A DNA stretch of 64,000 bases from Sinomonas sp. ASV486 (GTDB lineage Bacteria; Actinomycetota; Actinomycetes; Actinomycetales; Micrococcaceae): assembly GCF_030908215.1 (NCBI RefSeq), contig NZ_JAVFJK010000003.1, positions 185,883-249,882 on the forward strand, read 5' to 3'. A program made the position numbers and the translations under genes. The notes beneath the pieces were generated by a model. It was not told where the DNA came from. It did not search any database and saw nothing but the letters and a program-made list of their open reading frames with translations. How positions within the stretch are numbered: the stretch's first letter is position 1; every line of letters starts with the position of its first letter. Positions 14,067-21,995 of this stretch are shown here, in pieces.

Positions 14067-17000
14067 TCAGCGGGCCAGCTGCGCCGACAGGCCGGCGTCG
14101 TGCGCGGAGTCCGCGCGCCGCGCTCCGAGTTCCACGAGCAGGTCCCCGGGCATGAGCTCCGAGGCGTGATGTGTGACCATGATGACGGTCCGGTCGGCGA
14201 GCGCCTCGTGCAGCGCGGTGACGAGCTCGAGGCCGGCCTCCGCGTCGAGGTGGGCGGTCGGCTCGTCGAGGAGCACCGTCTCGGCCCCCGCGAGCAGAGT
14301 GCGCGCCACGGCGAGCCGCTGCCGCTGGCCGCCCGAGAGGAAGGACCCACGGCTGCCGATGCGCGCGTCAAGGCCGTACGGGAGGGTCTGCACATGGGCG
14401 AGCAGGCCGACCCTCGCGAGGACCTCTTCGAGTTCGGCGTCCGACGGCGCGTGGTCGCGGTCGCGGGCGATTGCGAGGTTTCCGCGGACGGTCGAGTCGA
14501 AGAGGTGCGACTCCTGAGGGCACCAGGCCACGGGTCCGGTGACCTCGACAGTCCCCCGGCGCGGTCTGAGGAACCCCGTGAGGAGCGCGAGCACGGTGGA
14601 CTTGCCGGCTCCGGATGGACCCGCAACGATGACCCAGTCCCCCGGCCCCGCCGCGAGGTCCAGCCCAGTGACGACGTCGGAGCCACCGGGCCACCCGACG
14701 CCCACGTCGCGGAGGCAGACACCCGTAGGTCCGGCCGCGGACACCCGTGGGTCGGGCCGCAACAGAGCCGCCCCGGCTGTCGTCGGCTGGGCTGTCTGCG
14801 GCCGGGCAGTGTTCGGCCGGGCAGTGTTCGCCTGTGCTGCGGTCGCCTCGGCTCCGTTCGGGTGGGCAGTGTTCGGCTGGACTGCGTTCGGCCGGGCAGT
14901 GGTCGTGTGGGCCGCCTCCGTGTGGGCCGCGTCTCGGCCCGGCATCGCCCGCGGGGCCCCCACCGACTCCTCCGCCGCGACGCGCGTGAGCGCCGATCGG
15001 AGTGCCGGTAGCTGTTGGACGGCCGTGCTCGCGGCTGCGAGCGGCTCGGCGAGCGCGAGCTGGAGCAGCAGGACGGCGGCGACCGTGGTTGCCGGGGCGC
15101 CCGCCGCGTGGGCGGTGACGAGGGTCAAGACGGCCGCGATGCCGGTCGCGGCAATGACGATCCCCTGCGCGAGGCCCTCGGCCGCCGCCCCGCGGCGCTC
15201 GAGGCGGGTGAGCGCTCCGTCCTCCGACCGGAGGCGGGCAAGGACGGCACCGGTACGGGAGTTCGCCGCGAGGTCACCGGCTGCGGCGAGTGCCTGCCCC
15301 ATCCGGGCCAGGAAGCGTGCACGGCCGCTCTGGAGGCGCACGGCCGAGCGCCGGTCCGCTGCCAGGGCTGCCGCCGGCGCGGCGATGAGCGACACCACGA
15401 GGGCTGCCGCGAGCACGGGCAGCTGGCCGGGCAGCAGGATCCCGACGGCGACGGCGCCGCCGGCGCCCACGAGGACCGCGGTCGCGAGGGGATGCAGCAC
15501 CCGCGGGAGCTGGTCGCGCACCGCCTCGACGTCCCCGACGAGGGATTCAAGTGCCGCACCCGGGACCAGGAGCCGGCGCGCAGCGAGCCCACGGCTCGAC
15601 AACGCACCCCAGAGCCGGTCGCGCAGAACGGTGAGCGTTGACAGGACCGCCGAGTGCAGCACCAGGCGCTCCCGGTACCGCAGCACGGCCCGCGCGATGC
15701 CGAAGAACCGCACCCCCGTGATCGCCGTCAGCAGGTACAGGATCGGAGGCTGTTCGGCAGCGCGCACGATGAGCCAGCCGGACAGCGTCGAGAGGGCCAC
15801 TGCGGCTGCGGCAGATCCGAGGCCGGCAAGGGCCGCGCGGGCGTATTTCCAAACGTCCGGGCGGATCAGGGAGACGAGCACGCGTAGCCACGTGCCGCGA
15901 GGCGCGGTGGTGACCGCCGGCGCATCGCGTGTCGGGGCGGGCGTCTCCGGCGTCGCGGAGCGGAACCTCTCGGATGCGGTGCCAGCGGAAGGTGCGAGCT
16001 CGACGACGTGGTCAGCGAGGGCCGCCGTTCGGGTCTCGTGGGAGACGAGCAGGACCGTCGCGCGGCCGGAGAGTGCGCCGATGGCCCGCTCAACGAGGTC
16101 CGCGGAGGCGCCATCGAGATGCGCGGTGGGCTCGTCGAGCAGCACGAGGCCCGCCCCGTCCGCGACGCGGGCCAGGCCGCGGCCCACCGCGACGCGGCGC
16201 TGCTGTCCGGGGCTCAGCTCGCTCGGGTCGGCGTCGGCGAGCCCGGCGAGGCCGAGCCTGCGGAGAATGGCGTCCGTGAGCGTCGCATCCCGATCGACCG
16301 CACTCCCCGCGTACAGCGCGAGCTCGGCCGCGACGGTGCGCTGCGTGAACTGCGGGTGTTGCGGGACCCATGCGATCCCGGAAGGATCCGAGCCCTGCAC
16401 CGTCCCCGAGACAGCCGCCCCTGCGCCGTCGCGCACGAGCCCGGCGATCGCGGCCAGGATGGTGGTCTTGCCTGAGCCGCTGGGGCCGGCCAGCACGGTC
16501 ACGCGCCCGGCCGGAGCGGTGAAGGTGAGCGGTCCTGCGGCGTCGTGGGGCGCGCCGTCGTACCTCACGGAGAGCCGCTCCACGCTCAGCTGCGGGACGC
16601 CGCCGTCGCGACCCGGTTCACGGCCGGGCCGCTCTGCTGCCGAGAGGAGCCGTGCGCCGTGCGGCACAGCCAACCGCTCACGCGTGCGCCGCAGGGCCTC
16701 CGTGCCGTCCTCGCTCGCATGGTGGGCGCTGCCGAGATCGCGCAGCGGCTGGAAGCATTCCGGAGCGAGGATGAGGGCGAGGAGCCCTGCCTCGAGGGTC
16801 ATCTCGCCATACACGAGACGGACGCCGATGAACACCGCCACCACGGCCACAGAGATCGTGGAGATGAGCTCGAGGGCCAGTGAGGACAGGAAGGCGACCC
16901 TGAGCGTGGCCATCGTCCGGCCCTTGTAGGCACGGGACAGCTCACCGAGGGCCACGCGCTGCTCGCGTGCGCGGCCGAGGCCGACGAGCACGGGCAGGCC

Positions 17001-17630
17001 CTGCGCAAGCTCGACCAGGTGTGAGCCGAGCCGCAGGAGCGCCTGTTGGGCCTCCGACACCGCACCGACGGTGTGGCGCCCGATAAGGATCATGAACAGG
17101 GGCACGAGCGGGAGCGTGAGCACGAGGATGAGCGCGCTCACCCAGTCCGCGCCGAGGATCCGGGCCCCGAGCAGCACCGGCACGGTGGCGGTCCCGACCA
17201 TCGCGGGAAGGTACTGCGTGTACAGCGAGTCGAGGGCGTCGAGGCCCCGGCCGGCGAGCACGGCGGTCGCTGCGGGCGACGACGCGACGCGGTCCGCGCC
17301 GTCGTCCGCGGAAGGGCCTTCGGTGCCACCGGCGTCCATCCCCGCCTCGATCAGCTCGGCGCGGAGCTCCTCCTTCACCCCAACGGCGGCCCACCGGCCC
17401 ACCGCGGACGTTCCCCACTGTGCGACGCCCCGGACCAGAACACCTGCGGCTGCCCACAGGGCCGCATCGCGGACGGTCCCCGTGCCGGGGGTCCCGGACG
17501 CGAGCCCCGCGATACCCGCGGCGATCCCCTGGGCCATGAGGATGAGCCCCACAGCCTTGGCCACGGCGAGGAGGCCGAGGCCCAGGAGCGCCCGGCGGGT
17601 CGAGGGTCCTAGGGGAATCTCCGGTCGCAT
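14067..17630 (-). CDS. cydDC: Fused CydD-CydC thiol reductant ABC exporter
   Basis: A single 1187-aa polypeptide containing both halves of the heterodimeric CydDC exporter, which exports glutathione/cysteine-type thiols and is needed to assemble cytochrome bd. The CydD half (residues about 1-560) has a transmembrane domain and an ATPase with Walker A PSGSGKTT near residue 385, signature LSPGQQRR and Walker B LVLLDEPTAHLDG. The CydC half (about 570-1187) has a second transmembrane domain and an ATPase with PSGAGKST near residue 1005, LSGGQRQR and TVLLDEPTAHLD. Between the second membrane domain and its ATPase (residues about 895-955) lies a repetitive T-A-x-P-N linker. It starts 6 nt after the cydB stop. 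Confidence 0.94.
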   Translation of the reverse strand: MRPEIPLGPSTRRALLGLGLLAVAKAVGLILMAQGIAAGIAGLASGTPGTGTVRDAALWAAAGVLVRGVAQWGTSAVGRWAAVGVKEELRAELIEAGMDAGGTEGPSADDGADRVASSPAATAVLAGRGLDALDSLYTQYLPAMVGTATVPVLLGARILGADWVSALILVLTLPLVPLFMILIGRHTVGAVSEAQQALLRLGSHLVELAQGLPVLVGLGRAREQRVALGELSRAYKGRTMATLRVAFLSSLALELISTISVAVVAVFIGVRLVYGEMTLEAGLLALILAPECFQPLRDLGSAHHASEDGTEALRRTRERLAVPHGARLLSAAERPGREPGRDGGVPQLSVERLSVRYDGAPHDAAGPLTFTAPAGRVTVLAGPSGSGKTTILAAIAGLVRDGAGAAVSGTVQGSDPSGIAWVPQHPQFTQRTVAAELALYAGSAVDRDATLTDAILRRLGLAGLADADPSELSPGQQRRVAVGRGLARVADGAGLVLLDEPTAHLDGASADLVERAIGALSGRATVLLVSHETRTAALADHVVELAPSAGTASERFRSATPETPAPTRDAPAVTTAPRGTWLRVLVSLIRPDVWKYARAALAGLGSAAAAVALSTLSGWLIVRAAEQPPILYLLTAITGVRFFGIARAVLRYRERLVLHSAVLSTLTVLRDRLWGALSSRGLAARRLLVPGAALESLVGDVEAVRDQLPRVLHPLATAVLVGAGGAVAVGILLPGQLPVLAAALVVSLIAAPAAALAADRRSAVRLQSGRARFLARMGQALAAAGDLAANSRTGAVLARLRSEDGALTRLERRGAAAEGLAQGIVIAATGIAAVLTLVTAHAAGAPATTVAAVLLLQLALAEPLAAASTAVQQLPALRSALTRVAAEESVGAPRAMPGRDAAHTEAAHTTTARPNAVQPNTAHPNGAEATAAQANTARPNTARPQTAQPTTAGAALLRPDPRVSAAGPTGVCLRDVGVGWPGGSDVVTGLDLAAGPGDWVIVAGPSGAGKSTVLALLTGFLRPRRGTVEVTGPVAWCPQESHLFDSTVRGNLAIARDRDHAPSDAELEEVLARVGLLAHVQTLPYGLDARIGSRGSFLSGGQRQRLAVARTLLAGAETVLLDEPTAHLDAEAGLELVTALHEALADRTVIMVTHHASELMPGDLLVELGARRADSAHDAGLSAQLAR
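14774..14938. repeat. Degenerate 15-bp tandem repeats encoding the CydC linker
   Basis: Successive units resembling GGGCAGTGTTCGGCC encode pentapeptides of the form T-A-(R/H/Q)-P-N on the minus strand. The array is in frame within cydDC and is unlike the surrounding conserved sequence. Confidence 0.75.
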
Positions 17631-17636
17631 GGGGCC

Positions 17637-18701
17637 CTAGGCCGACTTGCCCGTGACGAGTCGGACCACGATCGCCGGAACCACCGAGTGCGCCGCGGGG
17701 ATGCTGTCCACCGTGAGGCGGCGACGGAACACCCAGTAGGTCCAGACCTGGTAGGCGAGCACGAGCGGGAGCCCGATGAGCGCAACCACCGTCATGAGGC
17801 CCAGCGTGTAGTCGGACGACGACGCGCTGCCCACCGTGAGGCTGTTGGCCGCATCGAGGGTCGAGGGCAGCACCACGGGGTAGACGGCGGAGAAGATCGC
17901 CGCAGCGCCGGCCACGAGGAATGCGGCGAGGCCGATGAATGCGCGGCCCTCCGAGCCCCGCCGCCCCAGGAGCCACGCGGTGACGGCTGCGGCCGCCGCG
18001 ACAACCGTCAGAGCCCAGCTCCACCAGGCACCCGTGCGGACCTGCACTGCGAGGACCCAGACGACGAGCGGGAGCACTGCGAGGGGAAGCCAGCGGACGA
18101 ACGCGCCATGGGCGCGCGTGCGGATCTCGCCGTCCGTCTTGAGCGCGAGGAATGCGAGCCCGTGGACGAGGGCGAACGCGACGACCGCGAGGCCGCCAAG
18201 CACCGCGTACCCGTTGAGCCACACGAACGGCCCGCCCACGCGGTCGCCGTTCGCGTCAAGCGGCAGGCCCGTCGTCGTGAGTGCGAGCATCGCTCCGACG
18301 CAGAACGCGGCCACGCCCGAGCCGAGTGCAAGCGCCCAGTCCCACGCCGTGCGCCAGCGGTCGGAGTGGACCTTGCCCCGGTACTCGATCGCGACGGCCC
18401 GGAAGATCAGCGCGACGAGGGCGAGGGTGAGTGGCAGGTACAGCGCGGAGAAGAGCGAGGCGTACCAGCGCGGGAAGGCCGCGAACGTTGCCCCGCCCGC
18501 AGTCAGGAGCCACACCTCGTTGCCGTCCCAGACGGGGCCGATCGTATTGAGCAGCACGCGCCGCTCACGCTCACCGCGGGCGAAGAGCTTCATGTGCATG
18601 CCGACGCCGAGGTCGAAGCCCTCGAGGAAGAGGTAGCCGAGCCACAGGACGGCGATCGCGCAGAACCATGTCGTGCCCAGGGCTGTGGGAAGGGTTTCCA
18701 T
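17637..18701 (-). CDS. cydB: Cytochrome bd ubiquinol/menaquinol oxidase subunit II
   Basis: A 354-aa integral membrane subunit of the bd-type terminal oxidase, which reduces O2 with quinol electrons at low oxygen. It opens METLPTALGTTWFCAIAVLWLGYLFLEGFDLGVGM (positions 1-35), the standard CydB N-terminus, and carries WDGNEVWLLTAGGATFAAFPRWYA in pieces near residues 55-78, with eight to nine helices in all. The ATG at 18701 has AGGAGG 9 nt upstream. It follows cydA by 13 nt and is 6 nt from cydDC, giving a cydA-cydB-cydDC operon. Confidence 0.95.
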   Translation of the reverse strand: METLPTALGTTWFCAIAVLWLGYLFLEGFDLGVGMHMKLFARGERERRVLLNTIGPVWDGNEVWLLTAGGATFAAFPRWYASLFSALYLPLTLALVALIFRAVAIEYRGKVHSDRWRTAWDWALALGSGVAAFCVGAMLALTTTGLPLDANGDRVGGPFVWLNGYAVLGGLAVVAFALVHGLAFLALKTDGEIRTRAHGAFVRWLPLAVLPLVVWVLAVQVRTGAWWSWALTVVAAAAAVTAWLLGRRGSEGRAFIGLAAFLVAGAAAIFSAVYPVVLPSTLDAANSLTVGSASSSDYTLGLMTVVALIGLPLVLAYQVWTYWVFRRRLTVDSIPAAHSVVPAIVVRLVTGKSA

Positions 18702-18714
18702 CAGTCGTTTCCTC

Positions 18715-20361
18715 CTAGTAGGCGAAGGCCAGGACGTCGTCGGCGGGCTTTTCGGCCCCGCCGCCGCCGGTGCCATCACCGCCGTCGTGCGGGCCGCCGT
18801 CGTGCTTCTGCGCGGTCTCGGCGAGTTCAGGCATGGCGGACGCGACGCCGCCGCGGATGTAGGTCACGAGGAGACGGACCTCGACCACCATGAGGGCCGC
18901 GTACAGGAGGGTCAGGACGATGAGCGACGTGAGGATCTCCCCCGCCGTCACGCCCGGAGACACTGCGGCCGCTGTGAACATGAACACCTGGTCGACGCTG
19001 CCTGCCATGGCGGGGTTGGGCGCGACGACGAAGGGCTGGCGCCCCATCTCGGTGAAGATCCACCCCGCTGCGTTCGCGCCGAACGGTGCGAAGATGCCGA
19101 GGACAGCCAGCCGCATGAGCCAGCGGGACTCGGGCACGGTGCCCTTGCGCGTGATGACGAGCGCGATGAGGGCAGCAAGCGCAGCGAGACCGCCGAACCC
19201 GATCATCGCCCGGAAGCCCCAGTAGGTGACCTCCATCACGGGCACGTAGTTGATGGCCTGCCCGGCGCGGTCGCCGTAGATGGGGTTGTCCGGGACCGCG
19301 GTGCCATAGGCCTTCCTGTACTGGTCCTGGAGGCTGTTGACGCCCTGGATGTTCGTGGTGAAGTCGTTGTGGGCGAGGAAGGAGAGCAGGCCCGGGATCT
19401 CGATGACCGCTGCGACGTCCGAGCAGTCCTTCGACCCGAGGTTGCCCACGGAAAGGACCGAGAAGCTGGTGCCGTCGTGGCACGCCGCCTCGGCGGCTGC
19501 CATCTTCATGGGCTGCTGCTCGAACATGAGCTTGCCCTGGAGGTCGCCTGTGATGGCGGTCCCGGCAAAGGAGATCATGGCGACGACGGCGCCGATCCGG
19601 AGGGACTTGAGCCAGACGGCATGGTCCGTGCGGTCGCGTCCAGCCACACCGACGGCCTCGCCGACGACGACGCGCTGCTTGCCGCGCGCCGTGCCCTCTT
19701 GGGCGACTTCGACAGTGTCGATGCCATCATGGCGCCGGCGCCACAGGTGGTACCAGGCGATGCCGAGGAGGAACCCGCCGGCCACGCCGAGGGCACCCAA
19801 GATGGTGTGCGGTACGGCGACGAGCGCGGTGTTGTTGGTGAAGACGGCCCACGCGTCCGTCATGACGGGCCTTCCGTCCACGACCTTGACGCCCACCGGA
19901 TGCTGCATCCAGCTGTTGGCAACGATGATGAAGTAGGCCGAGACCGCCGAGCCGATCACCGCGATCCACAGGGCGGCGAGATGCAGCCCCGGCCGCAGGA
20001 GCTTCCAGCTGAAGATCCACAGGCCGAGGAACGTCGACTCGACGAAGAATGCGAGCAGCGCCTCCATGGCCAGCGGGGCGCCGAACACGTCGCCGACGAA
20101 CCGGCTGTACTCGCTCCAGGCCATGCCGAACTGGAACTCCTGCACGATTCCGGTGGCCACGCCCATGATGAAGTTGATGAGGAAGAGCTTGCCCCAGAAC
20201 TTGGTCATCCTCAGGAACTCGACCTTGCCCGTGCGGACCCACACAGTCTCCAGGACCGCCACGACGAGTCCCAGGCCGATGGTCAGCGGCACCATCATGA
20301 AGTGGTAGACCGTGGTGATTCCGAACTGCCAGCGTGCTATCTCCAAAGCGTCCACGCACAT
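18715..20361 (-). CDS. cydA: Cytochrome bd oxidase subunit I
   Basis: A 548-aa subunit carrying hemes b558, b595 and d. The conserved start (M-C-V-D-A-L-E-I-A-R-W-Q-F-G) leads into the heme-ligand region TTVYHFMMVPLTIGLG; the ESTFLGLWIFSW and GWIFTEMGRQPFVV motifs typical of the family are present. It has a short Q-loop of the long/short divergent kind around residues 270-370 and a Gly/Asp-rich tail. The ATG at 20361 is chosen because the longer open frame runs through the operator region. It is first gene of cydA-cydB-cydDC; operators at 20385-20426 lie 24-65 nt upstream, implying repression by the divergently encoded BlaI-family regulator. Confidence 0.95.
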   Translation of the reverse strand: MCVDALEIARWQFGITTVYHFMMVPLTIGLGLVVAVLETVWVRTGKVEFLRMTKFWGKLFLINFIMGVATGIVQEFQFGMAWSEYSRFVGDVFGAPLAMEALLAFFVESTFLGLWIFSWKLLRPGLHLAALWIAVIGSAVSAYFIIVANSWMQHPVGVKVVDGRPVMTDAWAVFTNNTALVAVPHTILGALGVAGGFLLGIAWYHLWRRRHDGIDTVEVAQEGTARGKQRVVVGEAVGVAGRDRTDHAVWLKSLRIGAVVAMISFAGTAITGDLQGKLMFEQQPMKMAAAEAACHDGTSFSVLSVGNLGSKDCSDVAAVIEIPGLLSFLAHNDFTTNIQGVNSLQDQYRKAYGTAVPDNPIYGDRAGQAINYVPVMEVTYWGFRAMIGFGGLAALAALIALVITRKGTVPESRWLMRLAVLGIFAPFGANAAGWIFTEMGRQPFVVAPNPAMAGSVDQVFMFTAAAVSPGVTAGEILTSLIVLTLLYAALMVVEVRLLVTYIRGGVASAMPELAETAQKHDGGPHDGGDGTGGGGAEKPADDVLAFAY

Positions 20362-20384
20362 GCTCCCGGTTCTGCCGACTAAAC

Positions 20385-20401
20385 TTCTACGTTGCGTAGA
20401 A
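20385..20401. promoter_or_regulatory. BlaI-type operator 1 (TTCTAC-N5-GTAGAA)
   Basis: 17-bp perfect-arm palindrome with spacer GTTGC, starting 24 nt upstream of cydA. TAC/GTA dyads are typical of BlaI/MecI operators. The centre is 25 bp from operator 2. Confidence 0.8.
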
Positions 20402-20409
20402 AGATTGAC

Positions 20410-20426
20410 TTCTACAGAGTGTAGAA
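20410..20426. promoter_or_regulatory. BlaI-type operator 2 (TTCTAC-N5-GTAGAA)
   Basis: 17-bp palindrome with spacer AGAGT and the same arms as operator 1. A TACACT hexamer on the minus strand (20419-20424) inside it could be the cydA -10 element. Confidence 0.8.
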
Positions 20427-20516
20427 CATTGCTAGGTGCCGGATCTCTCGCGCAAGGTCGAGGTTGTCCCGATCGCGCTGTGAGCGAACGGCTCGCGCCG
20501 TAGCACCACGAAACTG

Positions 20517-20533
20517 TTCTACCGTGCGTAGAA
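20517..20533. promoter_or_regulatory. BlaI-type operator 3 (TTCTAC-N5-GTAGAA)
   Basis: 17-bp palindrome with spacer CGTGC, 61 bp upstream of blaI. Its right arm overlaps a TAGAAT hexamer (20529-20534) that could be the blaI -10 box, which would fit autorepression. Confidence 0.8.
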
Positions 20534-20593
20534 TGGAGTAGACGTGTCAAGGGTTGGCTGCGTCGGAACTGCATCTAAGGACTGGGAAGAAAC

Positions 20594-20965
20594 ATGGCAA
20601 GCCTGGGTGAACTCGAGCGTTCGGTGATGGACCTCCTGTGGACCGCCCCGGAGGCCTCCACCGCGAATGACCTCCGTGATCGCTTGGCCCAGACCGCGAG
20701 CCACGGGCAGGAAGGCAAGGATCTGGCAGTGACCACGGTCCTCACCGTCCTGTCCCGGCTCGAGAAGAAGGGCCTCGTGGAGCGCGAGCGCGGCACACGG
20801 CCCCACCGCTACCGTTCCATCTCGACCCGCGAGGATCACACAGCGCGCCTCATGCACGAGGCGCTCGGTACCGCACCCGACCGTGAGGCCGTGCTCGCAC
20901 GGTTCATCGGCTCTGTGACCGAGGCCGAGGCGGCGACCCTCCGCAAGCTCCTGGCGCGCGGCTGA
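20594..20965 (+). CDS. BlaI/MecI/CopY family transcriptional repressor
   Basis: A 123-aa winged-helix repressor. The N-terminus SLGELERSVMDLLWTAPEAST, recognition region VTTVLTVLSRLEKKGLVERE and wing RPHRYRSI are characteristic, and the C-terminal helical part is the dimerization arm that includes the site cleaved in BlaI/MecI. It binds as a dimer to TAC/GTA palindromes; three such sites lie between it and cydA. It is followed after 22 nt by an M56 metallopeptidase, the usual partner. Control of cydABDC is inferred from operator placement. Confidence 0.92.
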   Translation: MASLGELERSVMDLLWTAPEASTANDLRDRLAQTASHGQEGKDLAVTTVLTVLSRLEKKGLVERERGTRPHRYRSISTREDHTARLMHEALGTAPDREAVLARFIGSVTEAEAATLRKLLARG

Positions 20966-20987
20966 TCCGCACCGCCGGAGTGGGCGC

Positions 20988-21995
20988 GTGCTCGTAGCCT
21001 CCTACCTCCTCGCGCTGCTGGCACTGGTCCTCGCGTGGCCGGTGCCGGTGGCGCTCTCGCGCGCCCGCTGGCCCGCCCGCTCCCCCTTCGCCGCGATGGT
21101 CCTGTGGCAGTCGATCGCGCTCGCCGGAGGGCTCTCGATGATCGGCGCGATGCTCGTCTACGGGCTGTCTCCGCTCGGCGACAGCCTCGTGGCAGCCGTG
21201 CGCCGCGCGGTGACGATCGTCGTCGCCAACCAGACCACCGCCGAGCTCCACTTCTGGCACCTCTTCGCGCTCAGCGCGGCGGCCCTCCTGAGCCTGCACC
21301 TTGTCTTCACGCTCCTCCTGACCTACGCGCGGATCGTGGCCCAGCGGCACCGGCACCGCGAGCTGCTCTTCCTCCTGAGCGCGCCCTCCGGCGCGCTAGA
21401 GCGCACGTGGGTGATCAGCCATCCTGCCCCCGTCGCCTACTGCCTGCCCGGCGGGTCCCGGTCCGTGACCGTCCTGTCCGACGGACTCATGGAGACCCTC
21501 GCGCCCGAAGAGCTCGACGCTGTCGTGAGCCACGAGCGGGCCCACCTCACCCAGCGCCATCACCTGCTCCTCTGGGCCTTCGAGGCCTGGCGATCAGCCT
21601 TGCCGTGGCTGCCGACGAGCCGCCTCGCGCGGCAGTCCGTCAACTCGCTCATTGAGATGCTCGCCGACGACGTCGCGCGGCGCACAGCCCCGGACGACGT
21701 CCTCATCCGCGCGATTGCCCTCGTTGCAGTGGGCGATGCCGAGCATTCGGCGTCCGCGTCCGCGTCCGACGGCGCCCGGCGGGCACGGGGCGCTCCCTCC
21801 CCGCAGACGGAAGCGGACTCGGGCCTCGCGGCCGGTGCCTTCGACACGAACGGCGTCGACATCGCCGGGCGCCTCAGCAGGCTCCTGTCGCCGCGGCCCC
21901 CGCTCGGGAGGGGCGCCACCGCGATCGTCCTCACCGCGAGCCTGATGCTCATCGCCGTTCCGACGGTCCTGCTCCTCGCACCGGGCCTCGTCTGA
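20988..21995 (+). CDS. M56 family (BlaR1/MecR1-like) membrane metallopeptidase
   Basis: A 335-aa integral membrane protease. It has three N-terminal helices, a zinc motif HERAH (HExxH, residues 182-186) in the cytoplasmic loop and a final helix near residue 315-335. True BlaR1/MecR1 carry an extra C-terminal penicillin-binding sensor of about 250 residues; it is absent here, so the trigger is not evidently a beta-lactam. In the family the protease inactivates the cognate BlaI repressor. The GTG start has GGAG about 10 nt upstream, and the gene is cotranscribed with blaI. A Ser/Ala/Gln-rich segment (residues about 250-285) precedes the last helix. Confidence 0.88.
   Translation: MLVASYLLALLALVLAWPVPVALSRARWPARSPFAAMVLWQSIALAGGLSMIGAMLVYGLSPLGDSLVAAVRRAVTIVVANQTTAELHFWHLFALSAAALLSLHLVFTLLLTYARIVAQRHRHRELLFLLSAPSGALERTWVISHPAPVAYCLPGGSRSVTVLSDGLMETLAPEELDAVVSHERAHLTQRHHLLLWAFEAWRSALPWLPTSRLARQSVNSLIEMLADDVARRTAPDDVLIRAIALVAVGDAEHSASASASDGARRARGAPSPQTEADSGLAAGAFDTNGVDIAGRLSRLLSPRPPLGRGATAIVLTASLMLIAVPTVLLLAPGLV

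What the first reader, a model, noticed from the sequence alone, without database searches (positions are those of the whole stretch)
20361..21995. BlaI repressor plus truncated M56 protease wired to the cytochrome bd operon through three identical operators
Between cydA (-) and a BlaI-family repressor (+) there are three 17-bp palindromes with invariant arms TTCTAC/GTAGAA and variable 5-bp centres (20385-20401, 20410-20426, 20517-20533). Two sit 24-65 nt before cydA and one before blaI. The downstream M56 metallopeptidase keeps HERAH but lacks the penicillin-sensor domain of BlaR1. M. tuberculosis BlaI is known to touch respiratory genes, but direct divergent control of cydABDC by a protease-gated repressor is not something I recognise. 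The inferred system is a protease-triggered derepression of bd oxidase by an unknown membrane or respiratory stress.
Basis: partly seen in the sequence, partly recalled or inferred. Interest (0 to 1): 0.75.

Follow-up and report, generated by a model that had tools for sequence, protein, structure and literature searches.

The report
BlaI repressor of respiration and heme genes
A repressor best known from penicillin resistance, paired with a membrane protease that has no penicillin sensor, sits next to the genes for a back-up respiratory oxidase, and identical DNA sites suggest that it controls that oxidase together with heme, cytochrome and energy genes in many actinobacteria.

Summary
Observation confirmed. 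Three exact TTCTAC-N5-GTAGAA palindromes separate cydA from blaI. Their 36 arm bases are invariant in nine same-genus genomes, against 16 of 197 other columns. Sites track the repressor: 127 family genomes with a close BlaI average 5.4 sites (reversed control 0.46); 18 without BlaI average 0.11. In 80 titled relatives a BlaR-like protease follows blaI in 80 and cydA is divergent in 74; the six without adjacent cydA keep one site.

The same operator precedes hemQ (10 of 14 genomes), flavohemoglobin, cytochrome c and aa3-oxidase assembly, sdhC and ATP-synthase genes, so it looks like a respiratory and heme regulon. Divergent cydA-blaI-protease clusters recur in seven further families.

The core is not new: a paper states that M. 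tuberculosis BlaI binds the bd-oxidase and ATP-synthase promoters and that mycobacterial BlaR lacks the sensor (PMC5473688, passage). What I did not find in print is the shared-operator architecture, the breadth and the depth. Binding, protease gating and the signal are inferred.

The parts
20385..20401 (.). operator 1 (cydA-proximal), TTCTAC-GTTGC-GTAGAA
   Evidence: exact match; arms invariant in 9 of 9 same-genus genomes
20410..20426 (.). operator 2 of the cydA pair, 25 bp from operator 1
   Evidence: exact match; invariant arms; first-to-second site spacing 23-26 bp in 71 of 73 titled loci with two or more exact sites
20517..20533 (.). operator 3, in front of blaI; its right arm runs into TAGAAT, which resembles a -10 hexamer
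   Evidence: exact match; one site is kept in each of the 6 of 80 titled loci that lack an adjacent cydA. The -10 reading is by eye: the T after the arm is kept in 9 of 9 same-genus genomes, but other letters are commoner in the wider set, and the sigma-70 scan found no promoter
20594..20965 (+). blaI, BlaI/MecI-family repressor, 123 aa
   Evidence: PF03965 E 6e-20; closest solved chain 2g9w, E 2e-16
20988..21995 (+). BlaR-like membrane metalloprotease without sensor domain, 335 aa, HERAH, E223 and one invariant Cys152
18715..20361 (-). cydA, cytochrome bd oxidase subunit I
   Evidence: PF01654 E 1e-145
17637..18704 (-). cydB, cytochrome bd oxidase subunit II
   Evidence: PF02322 E 5e-96; TIGR00203
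14067..17630 (-). cydD and cydC as one 1187-aa frame
   Evidence: TIGR02857 and TIGR02868 both above cut-off on one frame

Best explanation
BlaI dimers bind TTCTAC-N5-GTAGAA and repress the divergent cydABDC promoter through sites 1 and 2, and their own blaI-protease operon through site 3. The same repressor holds down a wider set of unlinked respiratory genes in this and related genomes: heme synthesis, cytochrome c maturation, aa3-oxidase assembly, ATP synthase and NO detoxification. The neighbouring BlaR-like protease most likely ends repression by cleaving or otherwise inactivating BlaI when electron flow to oxygen is disturbed. Because it has no extracellular sensor, it would sense through its membrane or catalytic domain. 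Shown by sequence: operators, gene order, conservation and co-occurrence with BlaI. Inferred: binding, direction (repression), cleavage and the signal.
For: Exact sites and footprint-like conservation. Site number tracks BlaI presence in 149 family genomes; in family f4 the 9 sampled genomes with a BlaI match have sites and the 4 without have none. Upstream of cydA a site occurs in 12 of 12 genomes with BlaI and 0 of 12 without, both states occurring within genera g6 and g14. When cydA lies on another contig than blaI (G004), both keep their own sites. Six of six titled loci without adjacent cydA keep one site. The protease follows blaI in 80 of 80. Other families have cydA next to blaI, some with TACTAC-type sites, and three genomes with no cydA near blaI have a TACTAC-N5-GTAGTA site 29-51 bp before cydA. 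Recurrent respiratory targets. BlaR1-like fold. In Mtb, BlaI is reported to bind the cyd and atp promoters (PMC5473688, passage) and Rv1303 (PMC12565901, passages).
Against: No binding, expression or cleavage data exist here. Genomes are related, so counts are not independent. In 8 of the 12 'with BlaI' genomes blaI is adjacent, so a site there may serve blaI rather than cydA; only the four g11 genomes are unlinked. Ten of the 66 fetched sites have no assigned target. With one mismatch allowed, G000 sites are not above control. For TACTAC-N5-GTAGTA the excess in 15 genomes is modest, 23 sites against 9 reversed controls. One f6 locus has cydA divergent to blaI but no site within 1 mismatch. 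Titled locus L216 has cydA but a single site. G000 also carries a Rex-type domain, a rival regulator of such genes.
Confidence: 0.72

Rival explanations
1. BlaI is the repressor of these operators, but the signal is sensed by BlaI itself or by a second regulator (redox, copper, heme or a WhiB-type protein). The membrane protease has another substrate or only turns BlaI over.
For: No sensor domain in the protease. Copper-related targets occur (CopC, CopD/CtaG). Genus g11 has only a diverged BlaI, not next to cydA, yet a cydA site in 4 of 4. In Mtb, WhiB4 acts on blaR and blaC (PMC5473688, passages).
Against: The protease directly follows blaI in 80 of 80 titled loci and in 20 of 20 further loci chosen across the class; its active-site residues are invariant in 33 of 33.
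Confidence: 0.25
2. The palindromes belong to another respiratory regulator, such as Rex, and BlaI is a bystander.
For: G000 encodes a Rex-type DNA-binding domain, and several targets resemble those I recall for Rex in Streptomyces.
Against: Sites fall to background in genomes without BlaI (2 sites against 3 controls in 18 genomes). Of the 13 family-f4 genomes sampled, 10 have no Rex-domain match and 3 match weakly (E 7e-5 to 7e-4), yet 9 of the 13 have the sites. Sites sit at blaI itself.
Confidence: 0.04
3. An ordinary beta-lactam resistance switch (blaI-blaR1) that happens to lie beside cydA.
For: Family membership of BlaI and fold of the protease.
Against: No penicillin-sensor domain. Operators face respiratory genes, and none of the 56 assigned sites precedes a gene that I recognised as a beta-lactamase; no beta-lactamase family search was run, and 10 sites are unassigned.
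Confidence: 0.03

Closest known systems
Mycobacterium tuberculosis BlaI (Rv1846c) with BlaR (Rv1845c)
   Same: Closest solved chain is 2g9w, which I recall as Rv1846c. Sensor-less BlaR partner and reported binding at cytochrome bd and ATP synthase promoters (PMC5473688, passage); Rv1303-atp control (PMC12565901, passages).
   Different: In six genomes that I take for mycobacteria cydA and blaI lie apart, and the cydA site reads TACTAC-N5-GTCGTA. Here the genes are divergent, share three TTCTAC-N5-GTAGAA sites, and the apparent regulon adds heme, cytochrome c, aa3 and flavohemoglobin genes. Mtb BlaI also controls blaC according to passages of PMC5473688 and PMC8265638.
Staphylococcus BlaI-BlaR1 and MecI-MecR1
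   Different: No penicillin-sensor domain, no beta-lactamase target recognised, and a different operator spacing from the TACA-N2-TGTA that I recall for that family.
Rex regulon of actinobacteria (recalled)
   Same: Overlapping kinds of target: cyd, hem, atp.
   Different: Different protein family and operator; a Rex-type domain is also present in this genome.

Membership tests
BlaI/MecI repressor family | Penicillinase_R winged-helix domain over most of the protein | tested here: met
   PF03965 E 6e-20, residues 4-121; 2g9w E 2e-16
BlaI/MecI repressor family | binds palindromic operators at its own promoter | tested here: inconclusive
   Conserved palindromes upstream and co-occurrence; no binding assay
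BlaR1/MecR1 signal transducer | transmembrane metalloprotease domain with HExxH and downstream Glu | tested here: met
BlaR1/MecR1 signal transducer | extracellular penicillin-sensor domain | tested here: not met
   Protein ends with its last predicted helix, 308-334; 36 frames of 231-404 aa; only M48, M56 and one SprT-like match in 33 scanned members
BlaR1/MecR1 signal transducer | cleaves or inactivates its BlaI partner | not testable with these tools
   needs a protein assay
mycobacterial BlaI-BlaR respiratory regulator | operators at the cyd and atp promoters | tested here: met
   cydA: exact pair. atp: one-mismatch site 63 bp before the first gene of the atp operon in G000, and an exact site before a Cg1360-like gene in G008; the one-mismatch class as a whole is not above control
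Rex-regulated system | operators belong to Rex | not tested
   Rex-type domain present in G000; no Rex-operator search was made

The most novel reading that the evidence does not exclude
BlaI with its sensor-less BlaR-type protease is an ancestral regulator of respiratory-chain make-up and heme supply in the class that includes Micrococcaceae, mycobacteria and other actinobacterial families, and beta-lactamase control is a later, derived use. The protease may sense respiratory, NO or redox stress through its one invariant cysteine (Cys152, motif AYCLPG), which lies on a predicted strand (150-153) ahead of the catalytic helix (173-188). Ancestry was not tested with a tree, and the cysteine switch is a speculation.
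Probability: 0.45. Interest if true: 0.75.

Novelty: new variant of a known kind. Interest (0 to 1): 0.6.

Why it matters
It recasts a family named for penicillin resistance as a respiration and heme regulator in free-living actinobacteria, and offers a comparative explanation for why the mycobacterial protein touches cytochrome bd and ATP synthase. It gives a compact, testable model, in non-pathogenic soil species, of how such bacteria might switch to bd oxidase when respiration is inhibited.

Tried and rejected
Idea: BlaI replaces Rex where Rex is absent. Rejected for this genome, because a Rex-type domain is present.

Idea: BlaI presence simply follows cydA. Rejected: 12 of the 18 family genomes without BlaI still gave a cydA match (one of them, G033, partial), and G012 has BlaI and 15 sites with no cydA match.

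One-mismatch sites in G000: 5 besides the 7 exact, with 11 matches in the control, so as a class they are not above background. I kept only two whose place recurs elsewhere: before the atp operon (L045) and between SufR and the ABC-ctaA operon (L042). The one inside a glmU-like coding frame (L044) was set aside as chance; those near sucC (L046) and at L043 are undecided.

The promoter scan of 20300-20640 found no sigma-70 match, so promoter overlap rests on reading by eye.

The target assignment is partly circular, since references were taken from the same loci; only repeats across genomes count. The first ORF pick chose wrong frames in places (for example L093, L096, L097, L141), corrected. 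Not all sites were fetched: one of G012, two of G077 that were not listed, the seven of G104, and the blaI-proximal sites were left out.

Literature searches, seen as listings unless a passage is cited: BlaI+cytochrome bd+M56, 0 papers; Rv1846c+BlaI+regulon, 22; BlaI+cydA+heme, 11; BlaI+cydABDC, 1; BlaI+regulon+Arthrobacter, 20; BlaI+cytochrome bd+Sala, 20; broader searches. None of the titles or abstract beginnings listed describes a BlaI respiratory regulon in Micrococcaceae. The library lacks most subscription journals; Sala et al. 2009 was not seen.
Full report
Observation. The three palindromes are exact and at the stated places; with up to 2 mismatches the window has 5 matches against 0.15 expected. 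The genome holds 7 exact sites, and the reversed-pattern control 0. In nine genomes of the same genus (seven by handle, plus Sinomonas albida and S. gamaensis) the 36 arm positions are invariant, against 16 of 197 other columns, gapped columns counted as not invariant. The closest titled relatives are Sinomonas, 86-87% identical in BlaI.

Anatomy. cydA, cydB and a fused cydDC frame run left; blaI and the protease run right. In 80 titled relatives (the best 80 kept of 568 confirmed) the protease follows blaI in 80, cydA is divergent in 74, and 64 have exactly three exact sites. The six without adjacent cydA keep exactly one site; a seventh locus, L216, has cydA but one site. So the pair most likely belongs to cydA and the single site to blaI. 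In G004 cydA lies on another contig than blaI and still carries a pair.

Does the operator belong to BlaI? In 149 family genomes, 127 with a close BlaI carry 683 sites (mean 5.4; 126 of 127 have at least one; control mean 0.46). Eighteen with no BlaI match carry 2 (control 3), and four with only a diverged BlaI carry one each. In family f4, 9 of 9 sampled genomes with a BlaI match have sites and 0 of 4 without. I picked 31 genomes for a cydA search; 24 gave a match. Upstream of cydA a site with at most one arm mismatch occurs in 12 of 12 with a BlaI and 0 of 12 without. In 8 of those 12 blaI is adjacent, so the site may serve blaI; the other four, genus g11, have a diverged BlaI elsewhere. One of the 12 without, G033, is a short partial cydA match. 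Genera g6 and g14 contain both states. Fisher p is 7e-7, but relatives are not independent.

Depth. Of 57 loci checked for linkage, the protease follows in 57. cydA is divergent in 28 of 30 of family f1; in f4 in 9 of 9, each with at least one exact site; in f6 in 1 of 1 but with no site; in f24 a distant cydA-like match is present in 13 of 17. Of 20 further loci that I chose across the class, the protease follows in 20 and cydA is divergent in 10, two of these again f24 and the rest in f23, f26, f33 and f45. Some have TACTAC-N5-GTAGTA sites; others show related but different repeats. In 15 genomes the exact TACTAC form totals 23 against 9 controls, a modest excess. Yet in G276, G413 and G379, where no cydA was found near blaI, a site lies 29-51 bp before a gene that I read as cydA. 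Six genomes that I take for mycobacteria (the BlaI of one, G196, matches chain 2g9w over 115 residues at E 8e-60) have cydA and blaI apart. Each has TACTAC-N5-GTCGTA 41-59 bp before the cydA match. These are the only six positions that score 11 of 12 against TWCTAC-N5-GTAGWA among 21,693 scanned, and none scores higher. The exact TTCTAC form is limited: 41 of 296 class genomes, 37 of them in f1, f4 and f24.

Regulon. I fetched 66 sites not next to blaI from 14 genomes of 13 genera, not the full set. Of these, 56 have an assigned gene start within 350 bp. Recurrent: hemQ in 10 of 14 genomes; flavohemoglobin 6; an uncharacterised 132-aa membrane protein 6; a pyridoxamine-oxidase-like protein 5; a 117-aa membrane protein 4; SufR and/or its divergent ABC operon 4; CopC 3; hemA-hemE, ctaC, YceI-ccs and Usp 2 each. 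Once each: ctaB, SURF1, sdhC, an atp-operon gene, LDH, CopD-CtaG, DsbA, a 229-aa membrane protein and the unlinked cydA. Identities come from Pfam or NCBIfam for hemQ, Hmp domains, PPOX, CopC, SURF1, SdhC, COX2, UbiA, GlutR, URO-D, LDH, Usp, YceI, CtaA, CtaG, Cytochrom_C_asm and DSBA. The atp-operon protein matches NCBIfam Cg1360 below cut-off, and its neighbours were read by eye. In G000 the exact sites serve cyd-blaI, the YceI | gpm-TlpA-CcdA-CcsA cytochrome c cluster, hemQ-hemH, DsbA and the 132-aa protein; the atp and ctaA sites there have one mismatch.

Mechanism. Sites close before the coding starts fit repression by occlusion, but this was not tested. That one repressor would cover bd oxidase, heme supply, aa3 assembly and NO detoxification is best explained by a signal from failing electron flow to oxygen, with the protease as the release. 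That step is inferred from the BlaR1 paradigm.

Known. PMC5473688 (passages) reports, citing Sala et al. 2009 (not seen), BlaI binding at the cytochrome bd and ATP synthase promoters in Mtb, sensor-less mycobacterial BlaR, and higher expression of blaR, cytochrome bd and ATP synthase genes without WhiB4. PMC12565901 (passages) shows BlaI binding upstream of Rv1303 of the atp operon. PMC5874750, PMC7924339 and PMC8265638 (passages) add context. So the core wiring is known in one genus; the breadth and depth shown here were not found in the searches listed under Tried and rejected.

Noticed in passing
window 14067-17630 (-): CydD and CydC are one continuous 1187-aa frame with a low-complexity Ala/Thr/Pro-rich linker between the CydC membrane part and its ATPase.
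   Followed up: no
G012 (loci L136-L148): A genome without a detectable cydA has the most operators of the 149 (15), including ctaC, ctaB, SURF1, sdhC and CtaG, as if the regulon had shifted to the aa3 branch.
   Followed up: partly
L005:3775-4173, L095, L115, L131, L137, L149: A 132-aa membrane protein (G000 copy without a Pfam or NCBIfam match) is a recurrent operator target in 6 of 14 genomes.
   Followed up: partly
L098, L125, L130, L151, L295: A 111-117-aa membrane protein (no family match for the two copies scanned) is a recurrent target, also behind a TACTAC-type site in another family.
   Followed up: partly
L284, L291: In two mycobacteria-like genomes a TACTAC-N5-GTAGTA site lies 36 bp before a 144-aa membrane protein; the copy in L284 matches DUF4383.
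   Followed up: no
G000:C14:156711-156863 (L010): A second, weaker Penicillinase_R domain match in a larger open frame.
   Followed up: no
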